The notes under the pieces: model-generated
What the model saw: the letters and a program-made list of their open reading frames with translations, nothing else
What the model was told of the DNA's origin: nothing
Database searches by the model: none
From: Adhaeribacter swui
GTDB lineage: Bacteria; Bacteroidota; Bacteroidia; Cytophagales; Hymenobacteraceae
DNA: 64,000 nucleotides
Direction of reading: 5' to 3'
Assembly: GCF_014217805.1 (NCBI RefSeq)
Contig: NZ_CP055156.1
Span: forward strand, 4,160,585-4,224,584
Shown: positions 27,870-40,547 of the stretch, piece by piece
Layout of the letters: each line of letters opens with the position of its first letter
How positions within the stretch are numbered: the stretch's first letter is position 1
Made by a program: the position numbers and the translations under genes

Positions 27870-29465
27870 TTAACTGGTTTGTAAAGACAGGTTACTTTCT
27901 TCTAAATCCAGTTCGTTGTCCAGTCGCCGCAACAGTTCTTCTTCAATAATTCCTTGTTGGCGCAGCTCTTGCAATACCTGGCGTTCTACTTTAAAAATTT
28001 CGCACTGAGCCGAATGAAATTCCTGAAATAATACCTTGGGGTCTACGTGGCTGTTGTCGGTTCGTACCCGGCCGTTGATTTGGTCGATCTGCAATTCGTA
28101 TTTATTTTTTAAAAATTGCAAAATTTCGTTGCTGATATTTTCCGGCGAGAAATTAGATTCCAGGTGCACAATGGCTTTACTGGCCATTTGTAGCCGAATT
28201 TTCTTTTCAACCTCTTTGTATTTTTCTTCGATGGGTAAATCAAATTTTTTTATGAGCAGGGGTAAGGTTAAACCATGCACCACCAAAGAATACAAGATCA
28301 CGCAAAAAGTTAAAAAAATGATGAGTTCCCGACCCGGAAAAGCATTGCCGTTGGTTAAGGTTACCGGTAAAGCCAAGGCGGCGGCCAAAGATACAATGCC
28401 CCGCATGCCAGACCAGGATACAATAAACACGGCTTGCCAACTAGGCCGGGTTTCGGTAGAGCGGATGCGTTTGCTTAATAGCCGGGGCAGGTAAGTGCCG
28501 GGGTAAACCCAAATAATCCGGATGAGCATGGTTACTACGCTAATTACTAAACCATAGAAAATAATCTGGCTTAAAGAATAAGAACCCAGCGTGGTAAGAA
28601 TTACGGGCAGTTGTAAGCCGATGATGATAAAGATAACCGCGTTCAGTAGAAAAATAATAATATCCCAGACGTAGGTAGTTTGCAGCCGGGTATTATGCGT
28701 GAAAGTAGCGTGCAGCTTGCGCGTTAAAAACAAACCACTGGTAACTACCGCTAAAACGCCTGAAAAGTGAAAATGCTCGGCCAATAAAAAAGACAAATAC
28801 GGGGTTACCAGGGTTAGGGCTGTATCAATGGTAGGAATGCCGTCGATAAATTTGTGCAGATAATAAACGCCATATCCCACCAATAAACCAATTATTATAC
28901 CAGCTGCTCCCACCACCACAAACTGCAAACCTGCTTCCCAGATTACAAATTGGCCGGTTAGTACAGCCGCCACCGCGTACCGGTAGGCAATTAAACCGGA
29001 GGCATCGTTTACTAAGCTTTCCCCTTCGAGCACGGTAATTATGCGGCGGGGCACCCGTAAACCTTTGGTTACCGAAGTGGCAGCTACGGCATCCGGTGGA
29101 GATACAATGGCTCCCAAAATAAAACCTTCGGCTAAGCTAAAACCCGGAATTAAAGACGAACTGACATACGCAATAAGGCATGTGGTAAATAAGACGCAAC
29201 CAATAGCCAGAAATGAAATGGGCCGGCGAAATTTCTTTAAATCCCGCCACGAGGTGTTCCAGGCGGCGCCGTATAAGGCCGGGGGTAAGAAAACCAGCAA
29301 GGCAATATCGGGGTCCAGTTTAATAACTGGTAAGCCCGGTACTAAACCAATTAATAAACCCGTAATTACCAAAAAAACCGGGTAAGCGACCTTAATCTTA
29401 ATGGCAACTAAAGCAAATAAGATAGTAACGGCTAACAGGAGGATAATAATTTCCAGGTCCTTCAT
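27870..29465 (-). CDS. CPA1-family Na+/H+ antiporter
   Basis: A 531-residue monovalent cation/proton antiporter. About 12 helices span residues 5-410 with the CPA1 signature: PPALYGAAW in helix 3, SPPDAVAATSV and the ion-binding ND pair in ESLVNDASGL, then WSGMRGIVSLA. A cytoplasmic tail of about 110 residues (415-531) is charged and helical, as in NhaP/YjcE-type exchangers, and may regulate activity. It exports Na+ or K+ against protons at the inner membrane. It stands alone, with a 225-base gap to modC and no cation-binding regulatory domain visible. Confidence 0.93.
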   Translation of the reverse strand: MKDLEIIILLLAVTILFALVAIKIKVAYPVFLVITGLLIGLVPGLPVIKLDPDIALLVFLPPALYGAAWNTSWRDLKKFRRPISFLAIGCVLFTTCLIAYVSSSLIPGFSLAEGFILGAIVSPPDAVAATSVTKGLRVPRRIITVLEGESLVNDASGLIAYRYAVAAVLTGQFVIWEAGLQFVVVGAAGIIIGLLVGYGVYYLHKFIDGIPTIDTALTLVTPYLSFLLAEHFHFSGVLAVVTSGLFLTRKLHATFTHNTRLQTTYVWDIIIFLLNAVIFIIIGLQLPVILTTLGSYSLSQIIFYGLVISVVTMLIRIIWVYPGTYLPRLLSKRIRSTETRPSWQAVFIVSWSGMRGIVSLAAALALPVTLTNGNAFPGRELIIFLTFCVILYSLVVHGLTLPLLIKKFDLPIEEKYKEVEKKIRLQMASKAIVHLESNFSPENISNEILQFLKNKYELQIDQINGRVRTDNSHVDPKVLFQEFHSAQCEIFKVERQVLQELRQQGIIEEELLRRLDNELDLEESNLSLQTS

Positions 29466-29689
29466 AAATAGGCTTTCTTCAACAATTGCCCGACAAGCTG
29501 AATTAGGAGTGGGCGTTTAAAAATAGCAAATAATAGTAAAATTTAAATCGCAACAGCAGGCGCTTAGCTGCTTGTTGTTGCTGCCGCTACAAAGTTGAAT
29601 TTTTAAAAAATGGCATTTTTAAGAAGCAAAATCAGAATAGACTTAAGTGATTTTACCAGTACTTTAATTTAAAGAAAATTTTAAAATTT

Positions 29690-30307
29690 TTACTTCAGCT
29701 CAAACGCATGTTGGGCCAAGTCTCCGGTTTCGGCGGGGTAGTGGGTTACTACCAAACAAGTAATGGCAAACTCCCGCAATAATTGTTTTAATTCAGGAAT
29801 TAAACTTTGTTTTAAATTAGAGTCGAGGGCCGAAAAAGGTTCATCCAGGAGGAGCAGTTGGGGCTTGGTAGTAAGGGCCCGCAATAAAGCCAGCCGCTGC
29901 TGCTGGCCACCGGATAAGTGGCGGGGTTTGTGTTTCCGGAAAGATTGCATGCGGCCCAAATCTAATAATCGCTGCACGTAGGCCTGGTCGCGGGTACCAA
30001 AAAGCAAGTGTTGTTCTACGGTCATGTGCGGAAAAAGCGCATAATCCTGAAAAACAAAACCCACCCGCCTTTGCTGCGGACTTAAGCAAATATTGTTCGG
30101 CGTATCCAACCAAATGTGCGGCCCTACCTGAATAAAGCCTTTGTCGGGCTGCACCAAACCGGCAATAATTTTTAAAAAAGTAGTTTTTCCGGCTCCCGAT
30201 GGCCCCGAAATTTGCGTGGTGCTTTGCTCCGCGAAAGTGGTATTTAGCCGCAGCGGCTGGTGCCCGTTGTACGTTTTTATATGTTTAACTACTTCTACCC
30301 GGATCAT
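29690..30307 (-). CDS. modC: Molybdate ABC transporter ATP-binding protein, short form
   Basis: A 205-residue ABC ATPase with Walker A GPSGAGKTT, Q-loop FQDYALFPH, signature LSGGQQQR, Walker B LLLLDEPFSALD and switch His VVTHYP. It drives molybdate (or tungstate) import with ModB. Usual ModC proteins are about 350 residues with a C-terminal TOBE/Mop domain that binds molybdate; this one ends right after the ATPase domain, so feedback inhibition through that domain is absent. Its ATG overlaps the modB stop by 4 bases. The specificity rests on the neighbours modA and modB. Confidence 0.85.
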   Translation of the reverse strand: MIRVEVVKHIKTYNGHQPLRLNTTFAEQSTTQISGPSGAGKTTFLKIIAGLVQPDKGFIQVGPHIWLDTPNNICLSPQQRRVGFVFQDYALFPHMTVEQHLLFGTRDQAYVQRLLDLGRMQSFRKHKPRHLSGGQQQRLALLRALTTKPQLLLLDEPFSALDSNLKQSLIPELKQLLREFAITCLVVTHYPAETGDLAQHAFELK

Positions 30308-30975
30308 TCCAGCGGACTTTTGGCCGATTTTTGGTTTAAAACAAAAACAGCCACCACAATTACAAAAGTAAGGCTGAACAAAAACAAAGAATAATAGTTA
30401 GCGCTGGCGTAATCCAGGCTTTCTACGGCATCGTAAATGGCAATGGAAGCTACTTTGGTTAATCCCGGTATATTGCCGCCAATCATTAAAACTACGCCAA
30501 ATTCCCCCAGCGTATGGGCAAAGGTAAGTACCGCCGCCGTAATCAACGACGATTTAATATTAGGTAATAAAATGTACAGGAAAGTTTGCCACCGCGATTT
30601 GCCCATCGTGTAAGCTGCTTCGGCCATGGAGCGCGGTAAATGGTTAAAGGCCGACTTTACCGGACTAATCATGAAAGGCAAACTATAAATAACCGAAGCC
30701 AGAATTAAACCTTTAAACGAAAATACAAATTGCACGGCAAAAGTATCTTGCAGCCATTTACCCAAAGCATTTTGCGGGCTAAAAGCCAAAAGTAAGTAAA
30801 AACCTAATACCGATGGGGGAAGTACTAAGGGCATGGTTATAATGGCCTCGGTAATGAGTTTGGGTACCGAGCTGCGGCCAGCCAGCCAGTAGGCAATAGG
30901 TAAGCCAATTACCAGTAAAATAGCCGTGGTAACAAATGCAAGCTTTAAACTGAGCCAAATAGGCGCTAAATCCAT
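30304..30975 (-). CDS. modB: Molybdate ABC transporter permease
   Basis: A 223-residue inner-membrane permease with five or six helices and the cytoplasmic EAA loop (EAAYTMGKSRWQTF) that docks on the ATPase. Length and helix layout match ModB, and the stretch HTLGEFGVVLMIGGNIPG near the C-terminus is the conserved molybdate-permease block. It lies 17 bases after modA and overlaps modC, so modABC is one transcription unit. Confidence 0.92.
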   Translation of the reverse strand: MDLAPIWLSLKLAFVTTAILLVIGLPIAYWLAGRSSVPKLITEAIITMPLVLPPSVLGFYLLLAFSPQNALGKWLQDTFAVQFVFSFKGLILASVIYSLPFMISPVKSAFNHLPRSMAEAAYTMGKSRWQTFLYILLPNIKSSLITAAVLTFAHTLGEFGVVLMIGGNIPGLTKVASIAIYDAVESLDYASANYYSLFLFSLTFVIVVAVFVLNQKSAKSPLE

Positions 30976-30992
30976 ACTCTTATAGTTGCCAA

Positions 30993-31739
30993 CTAGGGAG
31001 TTAAATAGCCGTATTGCCGGAATAATTGTTGGGCCTCCGCGGAAAACAAATAACGGTAAAACTGCTGGGCTTTTGCGTAATTTTCTTTTTGGGCATGCTT
31101 CAGCAATATAACTCCTTGTTGTATCGGTGGGTACAATTTACGGTCTACCCGCACCCATTTTAATTTTTTATTTTGACTTTCGTAAATCAAAGCTTCGGTG
31201 GTAAATCCTAGTTTAACGGCACCCGTGGTAAGGTAGGTATTTACCTGGGCAATACTTTCGCCAAAAACCAACTTGGCCTGCAAGGTTTCCCATAATTTAT
31301 ACTGCCGCAAAACAGCTTCGGCGGCCTGGCCATAAGGTGCCAGCTTTGGATTAGCCAACGCAATTTTAGTTATTTCGGCTTGATTTACCAGCTTAGGCCA
31401 ATTTTTTAAATCCAGATTAGCACTACTGCAAACAATTAAGCTGCCAAGCGCATACGATTTTGGTTTACTTAAACCAAAACCTGCCTGATATAGGTTTTGG
31501 GGCATTGCCATATCGGCTGATAAAAACAAATCGTAGGGTGCGCCATTTTTAATTTGCGCCGTTAATTTTCCGGAAGAGCCGCTTATTATTTCCAGGTCAA
31601 TACCTGTTTTCTTCTGAAAATCTGTTTTTAAAACTTTAAGAACAAATTGCGCATTAGCTGCTACCGCCACCCGCAAAGGCTGACTACACCCCAATACCGG
31701 AAATAAAACAAACCAAACTATGGTTAAGAAAAGGCGCAT
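30993..31739 (-). CDS. modA: Molybdate-binding lipoprotein
   Basis: A 248-residue substrate-binding protein. The N-terminus has a hydrophobic signal ending VLGC, a lipobox with C18, so it is tethered to the outside of the inner membrane. Typical ModA features follow: VAVAANAQFVLKVL, then SGSSGKLTAQIKNGAPYDLF with the oxyanion-binding Ser residues, LSADMAMPQ, and a C-terminal region with the FSAEAQQLFRQYGY ending. Tungstate cannot be excluded as substrate. It lies 14 bases after the SUOX-fold gene at 31754. Confidence 0.92.
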   Translation of the reverse strand: MRLFLTIVWFVLFPVLGCSQPLRVAVAANAQFVLKVLKTDFQKKTGIDLEIISGSSGKLTAQIKNGAPYDLFLSADMAMPQNLYQAGFGLSKPKSYALGSLIVCSSANLDLKNWPKLVNQAEITKIALANPKLAPYGQAAEAVLRQYKLWETLQAKLVFGESIAQVNTYLTTGAVKLGFTTEALIYESQNKKLKWVRVDRKLYPPIQQGVILLKHAQKENYAKAQQFYRYLFSAEAQQLFRQYGYLTP

Positions 31740-31753
31740 AAGACCCGGTAAAA

Positions 31754-32260
31754 TTAAGAAGCGGATTGAATAATAATGTGATTAACCTGCCGGATAAAAC
31801 GGGTTTTCTTTTTCTCGCCTTCCACAATTATTTGAAAAGGGCCTTGTCCGGTACCTAGTAACTCCCCATTAATACGGGTAGCCAAAATTATTTTCTTATT
31901 AGAAAAAGCCGGATCAATTTCGGCTAGTGAAAAAACCACCTGGTATCCATCCGGGGCTTTAAGTAAAACGTATTTTTTTAAATTTTTTCCTTTTAACTCT
32001 GCGCCCAATGTTACCCCGGCCTTTTTCAGGATAGTAGCCAGCAATACGCCGGAATAGGTATGTGCCTGGTTTGTTTTATCCAGAACAATCACCGAGCTTT
32101 TTTCCATAGTGTCAATGGCAGCCAAGGTTATAGTTAGGGGTTCTTTTACTTCTCCGGATACCTGTAATATATTCTTCTCCGGGGCTTGGGCATGTCCCTT
32201 ATAGCCCAGCAGTAAAAAAGCCAGCAGGTAAATTCCGGAAAAGTAAATTTTAGTAATCAT
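31754..32260 (-). CDS. Exported molybdopterin-domain-like (SUOX-fold) protein lacking Cys
   Basis: A 168-residue protein with a signal peptide ending GYKGHAQA and one domain that resembles the oxidoreductase molybdopterin-binding fold (VSGEVKEPLTITL, then a YSGVLLATILKKAGV stretch, LKAPDGYQVVFSLAEI and the closing GPFQIIVEGEKK). In true sulphite-oxidase enzymes a Cys ligates Mo; this protein has no Cys at all, so it cannot bind the cofactor that way. It is the first gene of the modABC operon, 14 bases before modA. It may bind molybdate, a pterin or a redox partner in the periplasm; this is inference from position. Confidence 0.75.
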   Translation of the reverse strand: MITKIYFSGIYLLAFLLLGYKGHAQAPEKNILQVSGEVKEPLTITLAAIDTMEKSSVIVLDKTNQAHTYSGVLLATILKKAGVTLGAELKGKNLKKYVLLKAPDGYQVVFSLAEIDPAFSNKKIILATRINGELLGTGQGPFQIIVEGEKKKTRFIRQVNHIIIQSAS

Positions 32261-32405
32261 TTAATTAATAATTATTAAATTATAATGGTTTGCTAAAAAT
32301 ATTATTTTAGTAAAATGTGGCCTCAAGCATCTAATGTTGTAATTTTTTTCGGCTTACTGAATTGCCAGTTAAACCCGGCGGTGCCGGTAAAGTACTTAAT
32401 TAAAG

Positions 32406-32439
32406 TTTACCGTTATATTTTAAAAAATATAACGGTAAA
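32406..32439. promoter_or_regulatory. 34-bp perfect palindrome, ModE-like operator
   Basis: Left arm TTTACCGTTATATTTT (32406-32421) and right arm AAAATATAACGGTAAA (32424-32439) are exact complements around AA. The core CGTTATAT / ATATAACG resembles half-sites described for the molybdate-responsive repressor ModE (from memory). It lies 146 bases upstream of the mod operon's first ATG, in the divergent gap to the gene at 32660. No ModE gene is in this window. Confidence 0.6.
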
Positions 32440-32659
32440 TATAGTTAGTAAAGAGCAATTCGCAAGTGAAGGTCTCCTATAAAGCTTAAATTACTTACGC
32501 CGGTACCTGTCCTTACCGATTTAGTTGAACACGATTAAACAGAATTTGCTCAACCTTATTCTAAAATTATTATTCGATTATTAATACCTACCAACTAAGT
32601 TGCTTAATCAGCAGAAAAAGACGTTTTTATTTGTTATAGAAAGGTAAGAATTTAAAAAT

Positions 32660-33223
32660 ATGCACATAGCCATTCTTTCTACCAGCGTACGAACTGGCCG
32701 GAACAGCCACCGGGTAGGTATCTATTTTAAAAAGTTTATTGAAGAAAAACAACTTGCCACCGCCGATTTAATTGATCTGCAAGATTATCATTTCCCGATT
32801 TTTGAAGAGCGACTGCGGTTTATGGATAATCCGTTACCATCGGTGGTAGAGTTTGCTTCCCGGATGCAAAAAGCGGCCGGTATTATCGTGATTACGCCCG
32901 AATACAACGGCGGATTTCCGGCTAGTTTAAAAAACGTGATTGATCTATTATCGATAGAGTGGAAGGGTAAACCTACCAGCATTGTTACGGTATCAACGGG
33001 GCCATTGGGTGGGGTTTTGGTTTATCCGTCGCTTGTGTTTTCTTTATGGAAAAAAGGTGTTTGGGTAGTGCCGGCTCGGTATCAGGTGCCCCAAGTACAG
33101 GAAGCTTTTGATGCCCAAGGTAACCCCGCCGATGTGCCTGGTACCGAAAAAAGAACGCAAACTTTTCTGCAGGAGTTAGTATGGTTTATAGAAGCCCGAA
33201 GCAAGATGGCTAATACCGGATAA
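32660..33223 (+). CDS. NADPH-dependent FMN reductase
   Basis: A 187-residue flavodoxin-fold reductase. The N-terminal phosphate-binding loop reads LSTSVRTGRNSHRVG, and the flavin-contacting stretch TPEYNGGFPASLKNVID is characteristic of the FMN_red family (azoreductase/chromate-reductase type). It reduces flavins, quinones or azo compounds with NADPH in the cytosol. It is divergent from the mod operon, with the ModE-like palindrome between them, so joint control is possible. There are no other partner genes. Confidence 0.92.
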   Translation: MHIAILSTSVRTGRNSHRVGIYFKKFIEEKQLATADLIDLQDYHFPIFEERLRFMDNPLPSVVEFASRMQKAAGIIVITPEYNGGFPASLKNVIDLLSIEWKGKPTSIVTVSTGPLGGVLVYPSLVFSLWKKGVWVVPARYQVPQVQEAFDAQGNPADVPGTEKRTQTFLQELVWFIEARSKMANTG

Positions 33224-33451
33224 ACTAAATTAAGGTATAGTTTATTCCGTGGTCTGGTTTTAGGCTAAGTTTAGTTTCTACTTAATGGGGCTAATAATTA
33301 ATGGAATACTTGCTTTTTATTAACCTTATCAGATTTTTAAATTTTTTAAATTTCAGCTTTAATGTTTGCCTGTGTTATTTACCTGCTGAATCAGAATAGT
33401 TTATAAAAGTTAGGGTGCCCTATAATATGGCCAACCAAAATGGTAAAAATT

Positions 33452-33484
33452 TAAAAAAAAGACCCAAGTTGAAAAACTCAGGTC
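33452..33484 (-). terminator. Terminator of the suf operon
   Basis: On the minus strand GACCTGAGTT and AACTTGGGTC form an imperfect stem with loop TTTC, followed by eight T residues. It begins 11 bases after the stop codon at 33495 of the last suf-operon gene. Confidence 0.8.
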
Positions 33485-33494
33485 TGAAAGATTA

Positions 33495-33806
33495 TTATAA
33501 AAAGCCTAATTCCAATTTAGCTTCTTCGCTCATCATATCGCGGGTCCAGGGTGGGTCGAAGGTGAGCAGCACGTAAGCGTCGGTTACGCCTTCAATCGCT
33601 TCTAACTTACTTTGGGTTTCAAAAATAATGTCGCCGGCTGCCGGACAAGCCGGGGCGGTTAAGGTCATGGTTACGCGTACTTTGGTGCCTTCTTCTACCT
33701 TTATTTCATACACCAGCCCTAAATCATAAATATTAACCGGTATTTCCGGATCGTGAACGGTCCGGAGAACTTCTTCTACTTTATCTCTTAATTCCGAGGC
33801 GTTCAT
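33495..33806 (-). CDS. sufT: SufT-type DUF59 (MIP18) iron-sulphur assembly protein
   Basis: A 103-residue single DUF59/MIP18 domain: DPEIPVNIYDLGLVYEI and the conserved Cys in LTAPACPAAGD, ending with the DPPWTRDMMSEEAKLELGFL block common to SufT proteins. It assists maturation of Fe-S proteins after cluster assembly. It overlaps sufE by 4 bases and is the last gene of the suf operon, followed by a terminator. PaaD has the same fold, but the operon context fixes the assignment. Confidence 0.92.
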   Translation of the reverse strand: MNASELRDKVEEVLRTVHDPEIPVNIYDLGLVYEIKVEEGTKVRVTMTLTAPACPAAGDIIFETQSKLEAIEGVTDAYVLLTFDPPWTRDMMSEEAKLELGFL

Positions 33807-34234
33807 GATGCTTTTAAAGCTTGCGTTTGATAAGCTAAAGCGTATAATTTTATTTGCTTCAGCATGGCTAATAAACCGTTGGAGCGGGTAGGAGAGAGGT
33901 GGTTTTGTAAACCAATCTCATTAATAAAGTAAATATCAGCATTGGCAATATCCTGAGGCGTTTGCTCCGATAAAACCTGCACCACCATGCTTACTAAACC
34001 TTTGGTAATAATTGCATCGCTATCAGCGGTAAAATAAAGTTTCCCGTCTTTGTAATCGGCGTGCAACCAAACTTTCGACTGACAGCCTTTAATAATATTT
34101 TCTTCGGTCTTATACTTTTCGTCGATAATGGGCAGTTCCTTACCTAATTGAATAATGTACTCGTATTTGTCCATCCAATCATCAAATATCGCGAAATCGT
34201 CGATGATCTGATCCTGCCGCTCGTCTATGGTCAT
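33803..34234 (-). CDS. sufE: Cysteine desulphuration protein SufE
   Basis: A 143-residue SufE that accepts persulphide sulphur from SufS and passes it to SufB. The reactive Cys lies in IIKGCQSKVWL, and the FAIFDDWMDKYEYIIQLGK stretch near the N-terminus is the family block. The gene overlaps the SufT gene by 4 bases and follows sufS by 7 bases. Length matches the family (about 140). Confidence 0.95.
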   Translation of the reverse strand: MTIDERQDQIIDDFAIFDDWMDKYEYIIQLGKELPIIDEKYKTEENIIKGCQSKVWLHADYKDGKLYFTADSDAIITKGLVSMVVQVLSEQTPQDIANADIYFINEIGLQNHLSPTRSNGLLAMLKQIKLYALAYQTQALKAS

Positions 34235-40447: not shown

Positions 40448-40480
40448 CAAATTAAATTCATTAACCTGGTTAGCCAGGGT

Positions 40481-40519
40481 AAAGCAAAAAGCCAAAGTAC
40501 AACTTTGGCTTTTTGCTTT
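40481..40519. terminator. Bidirectional terminator between sufR and the ferredoxin gene
   Basis: An 18-bp perfect stem AAAGCAAAAAGCCAAAGT (40481-40498) with its complement at 40502-40519 and loop ACA. A-runs precede and T-runs follow, so the hairpin can end both convergent genes. Confidence 0.92.
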
Positions 40520-40547
40520 ATATTAAAAACGTTGCTGCTCCAACGAG

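What the first reader, a model, noticed from the sequence alone, without database searches (positions are those of the whole stretch)
32406..32439. 34-bp perfect ModE-like palindrome upstream of the mod operon
Arms of 16 bp with CGTTATAT/ATATAACG cores resemble molybdate-repressor sites and sit between modABC and a divergent FMN reductase. It suggests ModE-type control although Bacteroidota ModE is little studied, and no modE is in the window.
Basis: partly seen in the sequence, partly recalled or inferred. Interest (0 to 1): 0.5.

Follow-up and report, generated by a model that had tools for sequence, protein, structure and literature searches.

The report
Molybdenum repressor site before mod operon
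The palindrome is very probably the docking site of a short relative of the molybdenum repressor ModE, in front of the cell's molybdate importer; the same site also precedes two outer-membrane receptor operons, which suggests that molybdenum uptake is controlled at both membranes.

Summary
The palindrome is real: 32406-32439, two perfect 16-base arms, 2-base centre; no perfect inverted repeat with arms of 14 or more arose in 60 shuffles. Its core, CGTTATAT-N8-ATATAACG, resembles E. coli ModE operators. The genome encodes one ModE homologue, 289 kb from the site: 117 residues, winged-helix domain only; no molybdate-binding (Mop/TOBE) domain passes its cut-off in the genome. The genome has four sites with at most 2 mismatches (reversed-pattern control: 3); all four precede mod or TonB-receptor operons: this mod operon, the modE-TonB receptor gap (two sites), and an MbnH-like/TonB receptor/PruR-like operon. 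Of 200 family genomes, 87 of 88 with a site carry short ModE; 91 have neither. A matrix trained without mod sites finds the operator before modA in 24 of 27 modE-positive loci and 0 of 3 modE-negative ones. Promoter-like elements overlap the operator. Unusual: the regulator lacks a known sensor domain, and its predicted regulon includes outer-membrane receptors and a PruR-like, sulfite-oxidase-fold protein. Binding and metal response are untested.

The parts
32406..32439 (.). 34-bp perfect palindrome
32411..32434 (.). 24-bp ModE-type operator core CGTTATAT-N8-ATATAACG (the part conserved in relatives)
32436..32443 (-). predicted Bacteroidota -7 element TATATTTA; its TTTA is the outer arm of the palindrome
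   Evidence: same layout at the G003 mod operon and at the genome's MbnH-like operon; the promoter consensus TTG / TAnnTTTG is recalled
32463..32465 (-). predicted -33 element TTG, 19 nt upstream of the -7 element
31754..32260 (-). first gene of the operon: 168-aa PF00174 (sulfite-oxidase-fold) protein without any cysteine, PruR-like by fold, signal-peptide-like N-terminus (by eye)
30993..31739 (-). modA, molybdate-binding protein
   Evidence: TIGR01256, 172.1 bits, cut-off 62.5
30304..30975 (-). modB, permease
   Evidence: TIGR02141, 230 bits, cut-off 182.6
29690..30307 (-). modC, short ATPase of 205 aa; no TOBE domain matched
   Evidence: best match TIGR02142, 180 bits, under its full-length cut-off of 285.05
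32660..33223 (+). divergent NADPH-dependent FMN reductase; probably not part of the regulon

Best explanation
The palindrome is the operator of a one-domain ModE repressor (117 aa, encoded 289 kb away). A dimer of the short ModE binds CGTTATAT-N8-ATATAACG, one winged helix per half-site, over the -7/start region of the mod promoter and keeps RNA polymerase off when the cell has enough molybdenum; the operon (PruR-like protein, ModA, ModB, ModC) is released when molybdenum is short. The same protein represses the TonB receptor gene beside its own gene and an MbnH-like/TonB receptor/PruR-like operon. Shown by computation: the site, the homologue, the co-occurrence, the site's place before mod genes and TonB receptors in relatives, and its overlap with promoter-like elements. 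Inferred: physical binding, dimer, repression rather than activation, and molybdate (or a product such as Moco, or an accessory protein) as the signal, because the protein has no known sensor domain. The confidence given is for the core claim, that this is the operator by which short ModE controls the mod operon; rival 3 below shares that core and differs in sign or signal.
For: Own genome: 4 of 4 sites with at most 2 mismatches fall in three regions, all before mod or TonB-receptor operons. Family: 87 of 88 site-bearing genomes have short ModE, 91 of 200 have neither, Fisher p 5e-35 (related genomes, so not independent). Of 21 modE-only genomes, all fetched, 19 have a degenerate site after modE, 18 of them scoring above 10. 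mod operons: a matrix trained on 33 unique modE-TBDR sites scores 7.3 to 37.1 before modA in 24 of 27 modE-positive loci and at most -4.6 in the 3 modE-negative ones; scores above 7 occur in 0 of 61 window tiles and 0 of 48 tiles of six relatives' loci. Promoter overlap: TAnnTTTG over the operator in target-gene direction in 16 of 33 (TBDR) and 15 of 22 (modA) sites, against 2 of 33 and 0 of 22 in reverse. Regulator: PDB 2ijl and E. coli ModE by sequence and fold; Pfam HTH_1 over cut-off; TIGR00637 matched by 46 of 46 members of alignment A1 (46 of 95 different sequences).
Against: No Mop/TOBE domain above cut-off in the genome and ModE scores under the TIGR00637 cut-off (87.5 of 98.5 bits). 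The reversed control pattern has 3 matches in the genome against 4, so number alone proves nothing; place does. Relatives G009, G024 and G029 carry short ModE and modA but no site within 1.5 kb upstream of modA. Only 31 of 108 ModE genomes have a modA match at E<=1e-10. G003's modE has neither a site nor a reference TonB receptor beside it; G016's and the second G024 modE have none either. Some g5 mod sites score 7 to 12, within the best of 600 shuffles (12.0; 99th percentile 2.5), and the threshold of 7 was set after seeing them. A second promoter-like pair, TTG-N22-TATTTTTA, lies between site and gene (about 32326-32294). No TTG was found 17-22 nt upstream of the overlapping -7 boxes in relatives. 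G135 has a one-mismatch site (matrix score 16.7) and no ModE. No expression or binding data.
Confidence: 0.86

Rival explanations
1. Another dimeric regulator, not ModE, recognises CGTTATAT-N8-ATATAACG.
For: No binding data; G135 has a site without ModE; 21 modE-bearing genomes lack a site with at most 1 mismatch.
Against: In 26 of 30 fetched site loci modE and a TonB receptor lie in the same 3 kb, mostly with the site in the gap after modE; the site fits 8 of 10 specified letters per half of the E. coli ModE consensus printed in PMC545781 (passages); co-occurrence 87 of 88; 19 of the 21 modE-only genomes have degenerate sites after modE.
Confidence: 0.07
2. The palindrome works as RNA or DNA secondary structure: a hairpin or terminator in a leader transcript.
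For: A perfect palindrome can fold.
Against: In 33 unique relatives' sites the arms keep their letters while the centre is not kept complementary (0.24 and 0.18 at the two middle positions); it lies at a predicted promoter, not behind a gene; Rfam gave only a chance match far below its gathering score (mir-299, 22.2 of 67 bits) and no Moco riboswitch in 29000-34000.
Confidence: 0.03
3. Short ModE binds here but is an activator, or a repressor that does not sense molybdenum; the regulon is set by ModE level or by another signal (for example redox or a pterin). This shares the operator claim with the best explanation.
For: No sensor domain; PruR-like and MbnH-like genes among the predicted targets; most ModE genomes have no modA match.
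Against: Targets here include modABC; in other Bacteroidota the gene lies beside modABC, moaA-moeA or a molybdopterin oxidoreductase, which points to Mo; the operator overlaps promoter-like elements, which suits repression.
Confidence: 0.25

Closest known systems
E. coli ModE and its operators (modABCD)
   Same: Winged-helix domain (1b9m and 1o7l among the top fold matches); operator fits 8 of 10 specified letters per half, same spacing, of the consensus in PMC545781; modABC as target.
   Different: E. coli ModE has tandem molybdate-binding domains; here the protein ends after the winged helix and one C-terminal helix. TonB receptor and PruR-like genes as ModE targets are not known to me (recalled).
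One-domain ModE proteins: PDB 2ijl (Agrobacterium), Desulfovibrio (PMC545781, passages read), Campylobacter jejuni ModE-like protein (only its title seen, in a reference list; details recalled)
   Same: Winged-helix domain alone in 2ijl and Desulfovibrio; sensing mechanism called 'not clear' for Desulfovibrio in PMC545781.
   Different: Predicted Desulfovibrio sites are CGGTCACG-N14-CGTGACCG; here the operator is of the E. coli type.
PruR periplasmic pterin-binding protein (PMC13259868, passages read)
   Same: Small SUOX-fold protein lacking the Mo-ligand cysteine; top fold match 7kom; by eye the invariant DGY and the aromatic residue near the C-terminus resemble PruR's pterin site.
   Different: PruR is paired with DcpA-type regulators; here the gene is paired with TonB receptors, modABC or MbnH-like genes. 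Pterin binding not tested.
MbnH di-heme enzyme (TIGR04039; PMC3621798, passages read)
   Same: The enzyme in the third operon matches MbnH best and lies beside a TonB receptor.
   Different: 279.4 bits, under the cut-off of 362.85; its neighbour is a PruR-like protein; MbnP was not searched for.

Membership tests
ModE family regulator | LysR-type winged-helix DNA-binding domain of the ModE kind | tested here: met
   PF00126 31.5 bits, cut-off 26.6; AF2 model (pLDDT 93.3) matches 1b9m, 2ijl, 1o7l first; TIGR00637 E 4.7e-25
ModE family regulator | TIGR00637 curated score cut-off | tested here: not met
   87.5 of 98.5 bits; in five other genomes searched with the model, none over the cut-off
ModE family regulator | C-terminal molybdate-binding Mop/TOBE domains (full-length ModE) | tested here: not met
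   117 aa; in 110 of 117 loci searched a relative was read, 110-133 aa from aligned start to stop, own included; no PF03459 over cut-off in the genome, one 17.3-bit match under it
ModE regulon | E. coli-type operator | tested here: met
   8 of 10 specified letters per half and the N6 spacing of the consensus in PMC545781
ModE regulon | operator before modABC, conserved in relatives | tested here: met
   24 of 27 modE-positive modA loci, 0 of 3 modE-negative; 30 of the 34 modA matches were given as loci
ModE regulon | molybdate-dependent binding and repression | not testable with these tools
   needs gel shift and expression tests
PruR-type pterin-binding protein | small SUOX fold without the Mo-ligand cysteine | tested here: met
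   no cysteine shared by the 21 different sequences aligned, none in the window protein (five g5 members have two of their own); fold matches PruR 7kom, E 7.6e-9, ahead of sulfite-oxidase enzymes
PruR-type pterin-binding protein | pterin binding; pairing with DcpA | not tested
   neighbours seen are TonB receptor, modABC and MbnH-like genes
Moco riboswitch | Rfam match in the leader | tested here: not met
   window 29000-34000

The most novel reading that the evidence does not exclude
A one-domain ModE governs a two-membrane molybdenum acquisition system in Bacteroidota: TonB-dependent receptors that import a molybdenum complex (a molybdophore or a molybdopterin-like compound), a cysteine-less PruR-like periplasmic protein that binds the molybdenum or pterin ligand, and ModABC across the inner membrane, with Mo sensing by a mechanism other than a Mop domain. 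In most ModE genomes of this family the receptor, not ModABC, is the constant partner.
Probability: 0.3. Interest if true: 0.78.

Novelty: new variant of a known kind. Interest (0 to 1): 0.52.

Why it matters
It gives a concrete, testable regulon for one-domain ModE proteins, whose sensing mechanism is called unclear for Desulfovibrio in PMC545781, and it names candidate outer-membrane receptors and a periplasmic binding protein for molybdenum in Bacteroidota. The operator is found, with at most one mismatch, in 88 of 200 genomes of the family searched, so the prediction can be tested in Hymenobacter-type strains.

Tried and rejected
RNA families in 29000-34000: only a chance match under the gathering score. 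Weak TOBE match at C3:3245939 (17.3 bits, cut-off 22.3): taken as chance, its sequence was printed but not analysed. A loose pattern CGTTAT-N12-ATAACG with 2 mismatches gave 275 matches against 485 in the control and was useful only for its top rows. PDB sequence search with the PF00174 protein gave only chance hits; fold comparison placed it. PDB search with TBDR1 gave only partial similarity to the colicin I receptor and a pyochelin receptor, so no substrate is claimed. MbnH-like gene in the genus: the other copies are 36-59% identical, so the third operon's copy could not be traced. Matrix hits above 7 also lie away from modE in five loci beyond the family (L056, L057, L058, L071, L073); not followed up.

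Literature: searches with ModE and TonB receptors, C. jejuni, Bacteroidetes, ModE-like, TunR, molybdate transport with TonB receptor, Hymenobacter/Adhaeribacter/Chitinophaga, MbnH/SUOX, PruR, and molybdate-responsive with Bacteroid. Among the rows shown (lists were capped; 'mode' is also a common word) I saw no paper on a Bacteroidota ModE; a Flavobacterium moeA paper (PMC12758843) was listed and not read. The library lacks most subscription journals, so this is not proof of absence.

Rows dropped: L021, L023 and L041 were left out of the matrix training (mod site, MbnH-like site, unexplained site); loci L123 and L139 were read on the wrong strand and were redone; of 34 modA matches 30 were examined; one search counts the window protein twice among 22 rows.

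Full report
The observation. The stretch 32406-32439 is a perfect palindrome with 16-nt arms and a 2-nt centre. In 60 first-order shuffles of the window, perfect repeats (loop up to 10) averaged 0.13 at arm length 12, 0.017 at 13 and none at 14. It is followed on the minus strand by a 168-aa PF00174 protein, modA, modB and a short modC, and on the plus strand by a divergent FMN reductase.

What the site is. With two flanking bases per side the site fits 8 of 10 specified letters per half, and the spacing, of the E. coli ModE consensus ATCGNTATATA-N6-TATATANCGAT as printed in PMC545781 (passages read). The genome (6.23 Mb, 3 contigs) has one match at E<=1 to the ModE repressor domain, at C3:3903911-3904261: 289 kb from the site, 256 kb outside the window. 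The protein has 117 residues and only the winged-helix domain. A relative could be read in 110 of 117 fetched loci (95 different sequences, own included): 110-133 aa from aligned start to stop. No TOBE/Mop domain passes its cut-off in the genome, while the same search rings in 12 of 14 control genomes. Sequence and fold match E. coli ModE and the short Agrobacterium protein 2ijl.

The regulon in this genome. With at most 2 mismatches the genome holds four sites (reversed-pattern control: 3, so the number alone says little). One is the window's. Two start 12 and 57 bases after the end of modE, before a TonB-dependent receptor gene (TBDR1), with a TACTTTTG (-7-like) box between them. One lies before an operon of an MbnH-like di-heme enzyme, a second TonB receptor and a second PF00174 protein, 66% identical by BLAST to the window's. 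So 4 of 4 precede mod or TonB-receptor operons.

Relatives. In 200 genomes of the family, 88 have a site with at most 1 mismatch and 108 have short ModE; 87 have both, 1 a site only (G135, no ModE by two searches), 21 ModE only, 91 neither. The reversed-pattern control hits 7 of 200 genomes. Of the 30 site loci that one search gave (L020-L049; 29 from relatives, L023 own), 26 show modE and a TonB receptor in the same 3 kb, 1 a TonB receptor only (L046), 1 the mod operon of G003 (L021), 1 the own MbnH-like operon (L023), and 1 (L041) none of the reference genes. Of the 21 ModE-only genomes, all fetched, 19 have a degenerate site after modE, 18 scoring above 10 and one 4.8; two (G150, G175) have none. 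G003's modE, G016's modE and a second modE of G024 have no site and no reference TonB receptor beside them.

Test on mod operons. A matrix from 33 unique sites of the modE-TonB receptor gap, with no mod site in it, was scanned over 1.5 kb upstream of the modA match in 30 of 34 modA matches. It scores 37.1 (own), 35.8 (G003) and 7.3 to 23.6 in 22 of 22 loci of genus g5, in 20 of them 109-152 bases before the match. It finds nothing in G009, G024, G029 (all with ModE) or in G014, G019, G096 (no ModE). So 24 of 27 against 0 of 3 (Fisher p 0.005; the g5 promoters are related and not independent, and the threshold of 7 was set afterwards). Scores above 7 occur in 0 of 61 window tiles and 0 of 48 tiles of six relatives' loci; 600 shuffled upstreams had a 99th percentile of 2.5 and a maximum of 12.0. 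modA itself was found in only 34 of 200 genomes at E<=1e-10, 31 of them among the 108 with ModE: in this family the TonB receptor, not ModABC, is the usual neighbour of the site.

Mechanism. The Bacteroidota promoter consensus used here (TTG, about 19 bases, TAnnTTTG) is recalled. In the window, TTG-N19-TATATTTA ends in the outer arm of the palindrome; G003 has TTG-N20-TATATTTA and the MbnH-like operon TTG-N19-TAACTTTA at the same place. G003 keeps this outer arm on the promoter side only, so I read the 34-bp palindrome as a 24-bp operator plus a -7 element that happens to be mirrored. A second pair, TTG-N22-TATTTTTA, lies nearer the gene and does not touch the operator. In relatives, TAnnTTTG overlaps the operator in the direction of the target gene in 16 of 33 TonB and 15 of 22 modA sites, in the other direction in 2 and 0; no TTG 17-22 bases upstream of these boxes was found in either set, which speaks against a standard -33 element there. 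On balance the layout suits repression by occlusion. The middle of the site is not kept complementary among relatives (0.24 and 0.18), which speaks against a hairpin.

What is unusual. First, sensing: there is no Mop domain, so molybdate must act directly on the small protein, through another protein, or not at all. PMC545781 leaves the same question open for Desulfovibrio, whose one-domain ModE has other predicted sites. Second, targets: TonB receptors, and a PF00174 family without a shared cysteine (21 different sequences; five g5 members have two of their own) whose model is closest to PruR, a pterin-binding protein without the Mo-ligand cysteine (PMC13259868, passages read). Beyond the family the short modE lies beside modABC (L062, L063, L064, L070, L074), beside TonB receptor/MbnH-like/PF00174 genes (L059, L072), or beside moaA, moeA and a TauE exporter (L061), which supports a molybdenum role. 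Of the 24 loci L056-L079, 7 have a site above 7 within 500 bases after modE; in L060, L072, L074 and L078 it reads CGATAT...ATATCG. The genome has MoaA over its cut-off, so it probably makes the molybdenum cofactor.

Limits. TBDR1 has an in-frame stop near its N-terminus and the second receptor is split over two frames, so both may be inactive here or reflect assembly errors. All is computational; neither binding nor metal response was measured.

Noticed in passing
L018:9371-12127 (G000:C3 near 3904370): TonB receptor gene next to modE has an in-frame stop codon after about 62 codons, at a homopolymer run; pseudogene or assembly error.
   Followed up: partly
L162:3699-5680 (G000:C3 near 2332700): Second TonB receptor of the regulon is split over two overlapping frames; pseudogene or assembly error.
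   Followed up: no
L162:12868-15605: A molybdenum-hydroxylase-like pair (2Fe-2S small subunit and a 752-aa large subunit; read by eye, no search) lies about 6.6 kb past the third operon.
   Followed up: no
L061, L065, L067, L068, L077: In Flagellimonas/Muricauda records the short modE lies convergent to a TauE-MoeA-MoaA cluster (families searched in L061 only; same ORF layout in the others).
   Followed up: partly
804-838 and 40480-40520: Two other long perfect palindromes, hairpins with T runs by eye; terminator-like.
   Followed up: partly
G024:C2:2235159 (L163): A second short ModE copy in relative G024 without a site or reference TonB receptor in the 14 kb fetched.
   Followed up: no
L056:1348, L058:1346, L071:3293, L073:3353: Operator-like matrix hits far from modE at like positions in two Chitinophaga and two Thiomicrorhabdus records; possible further ModE targets.
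   Followed up: no
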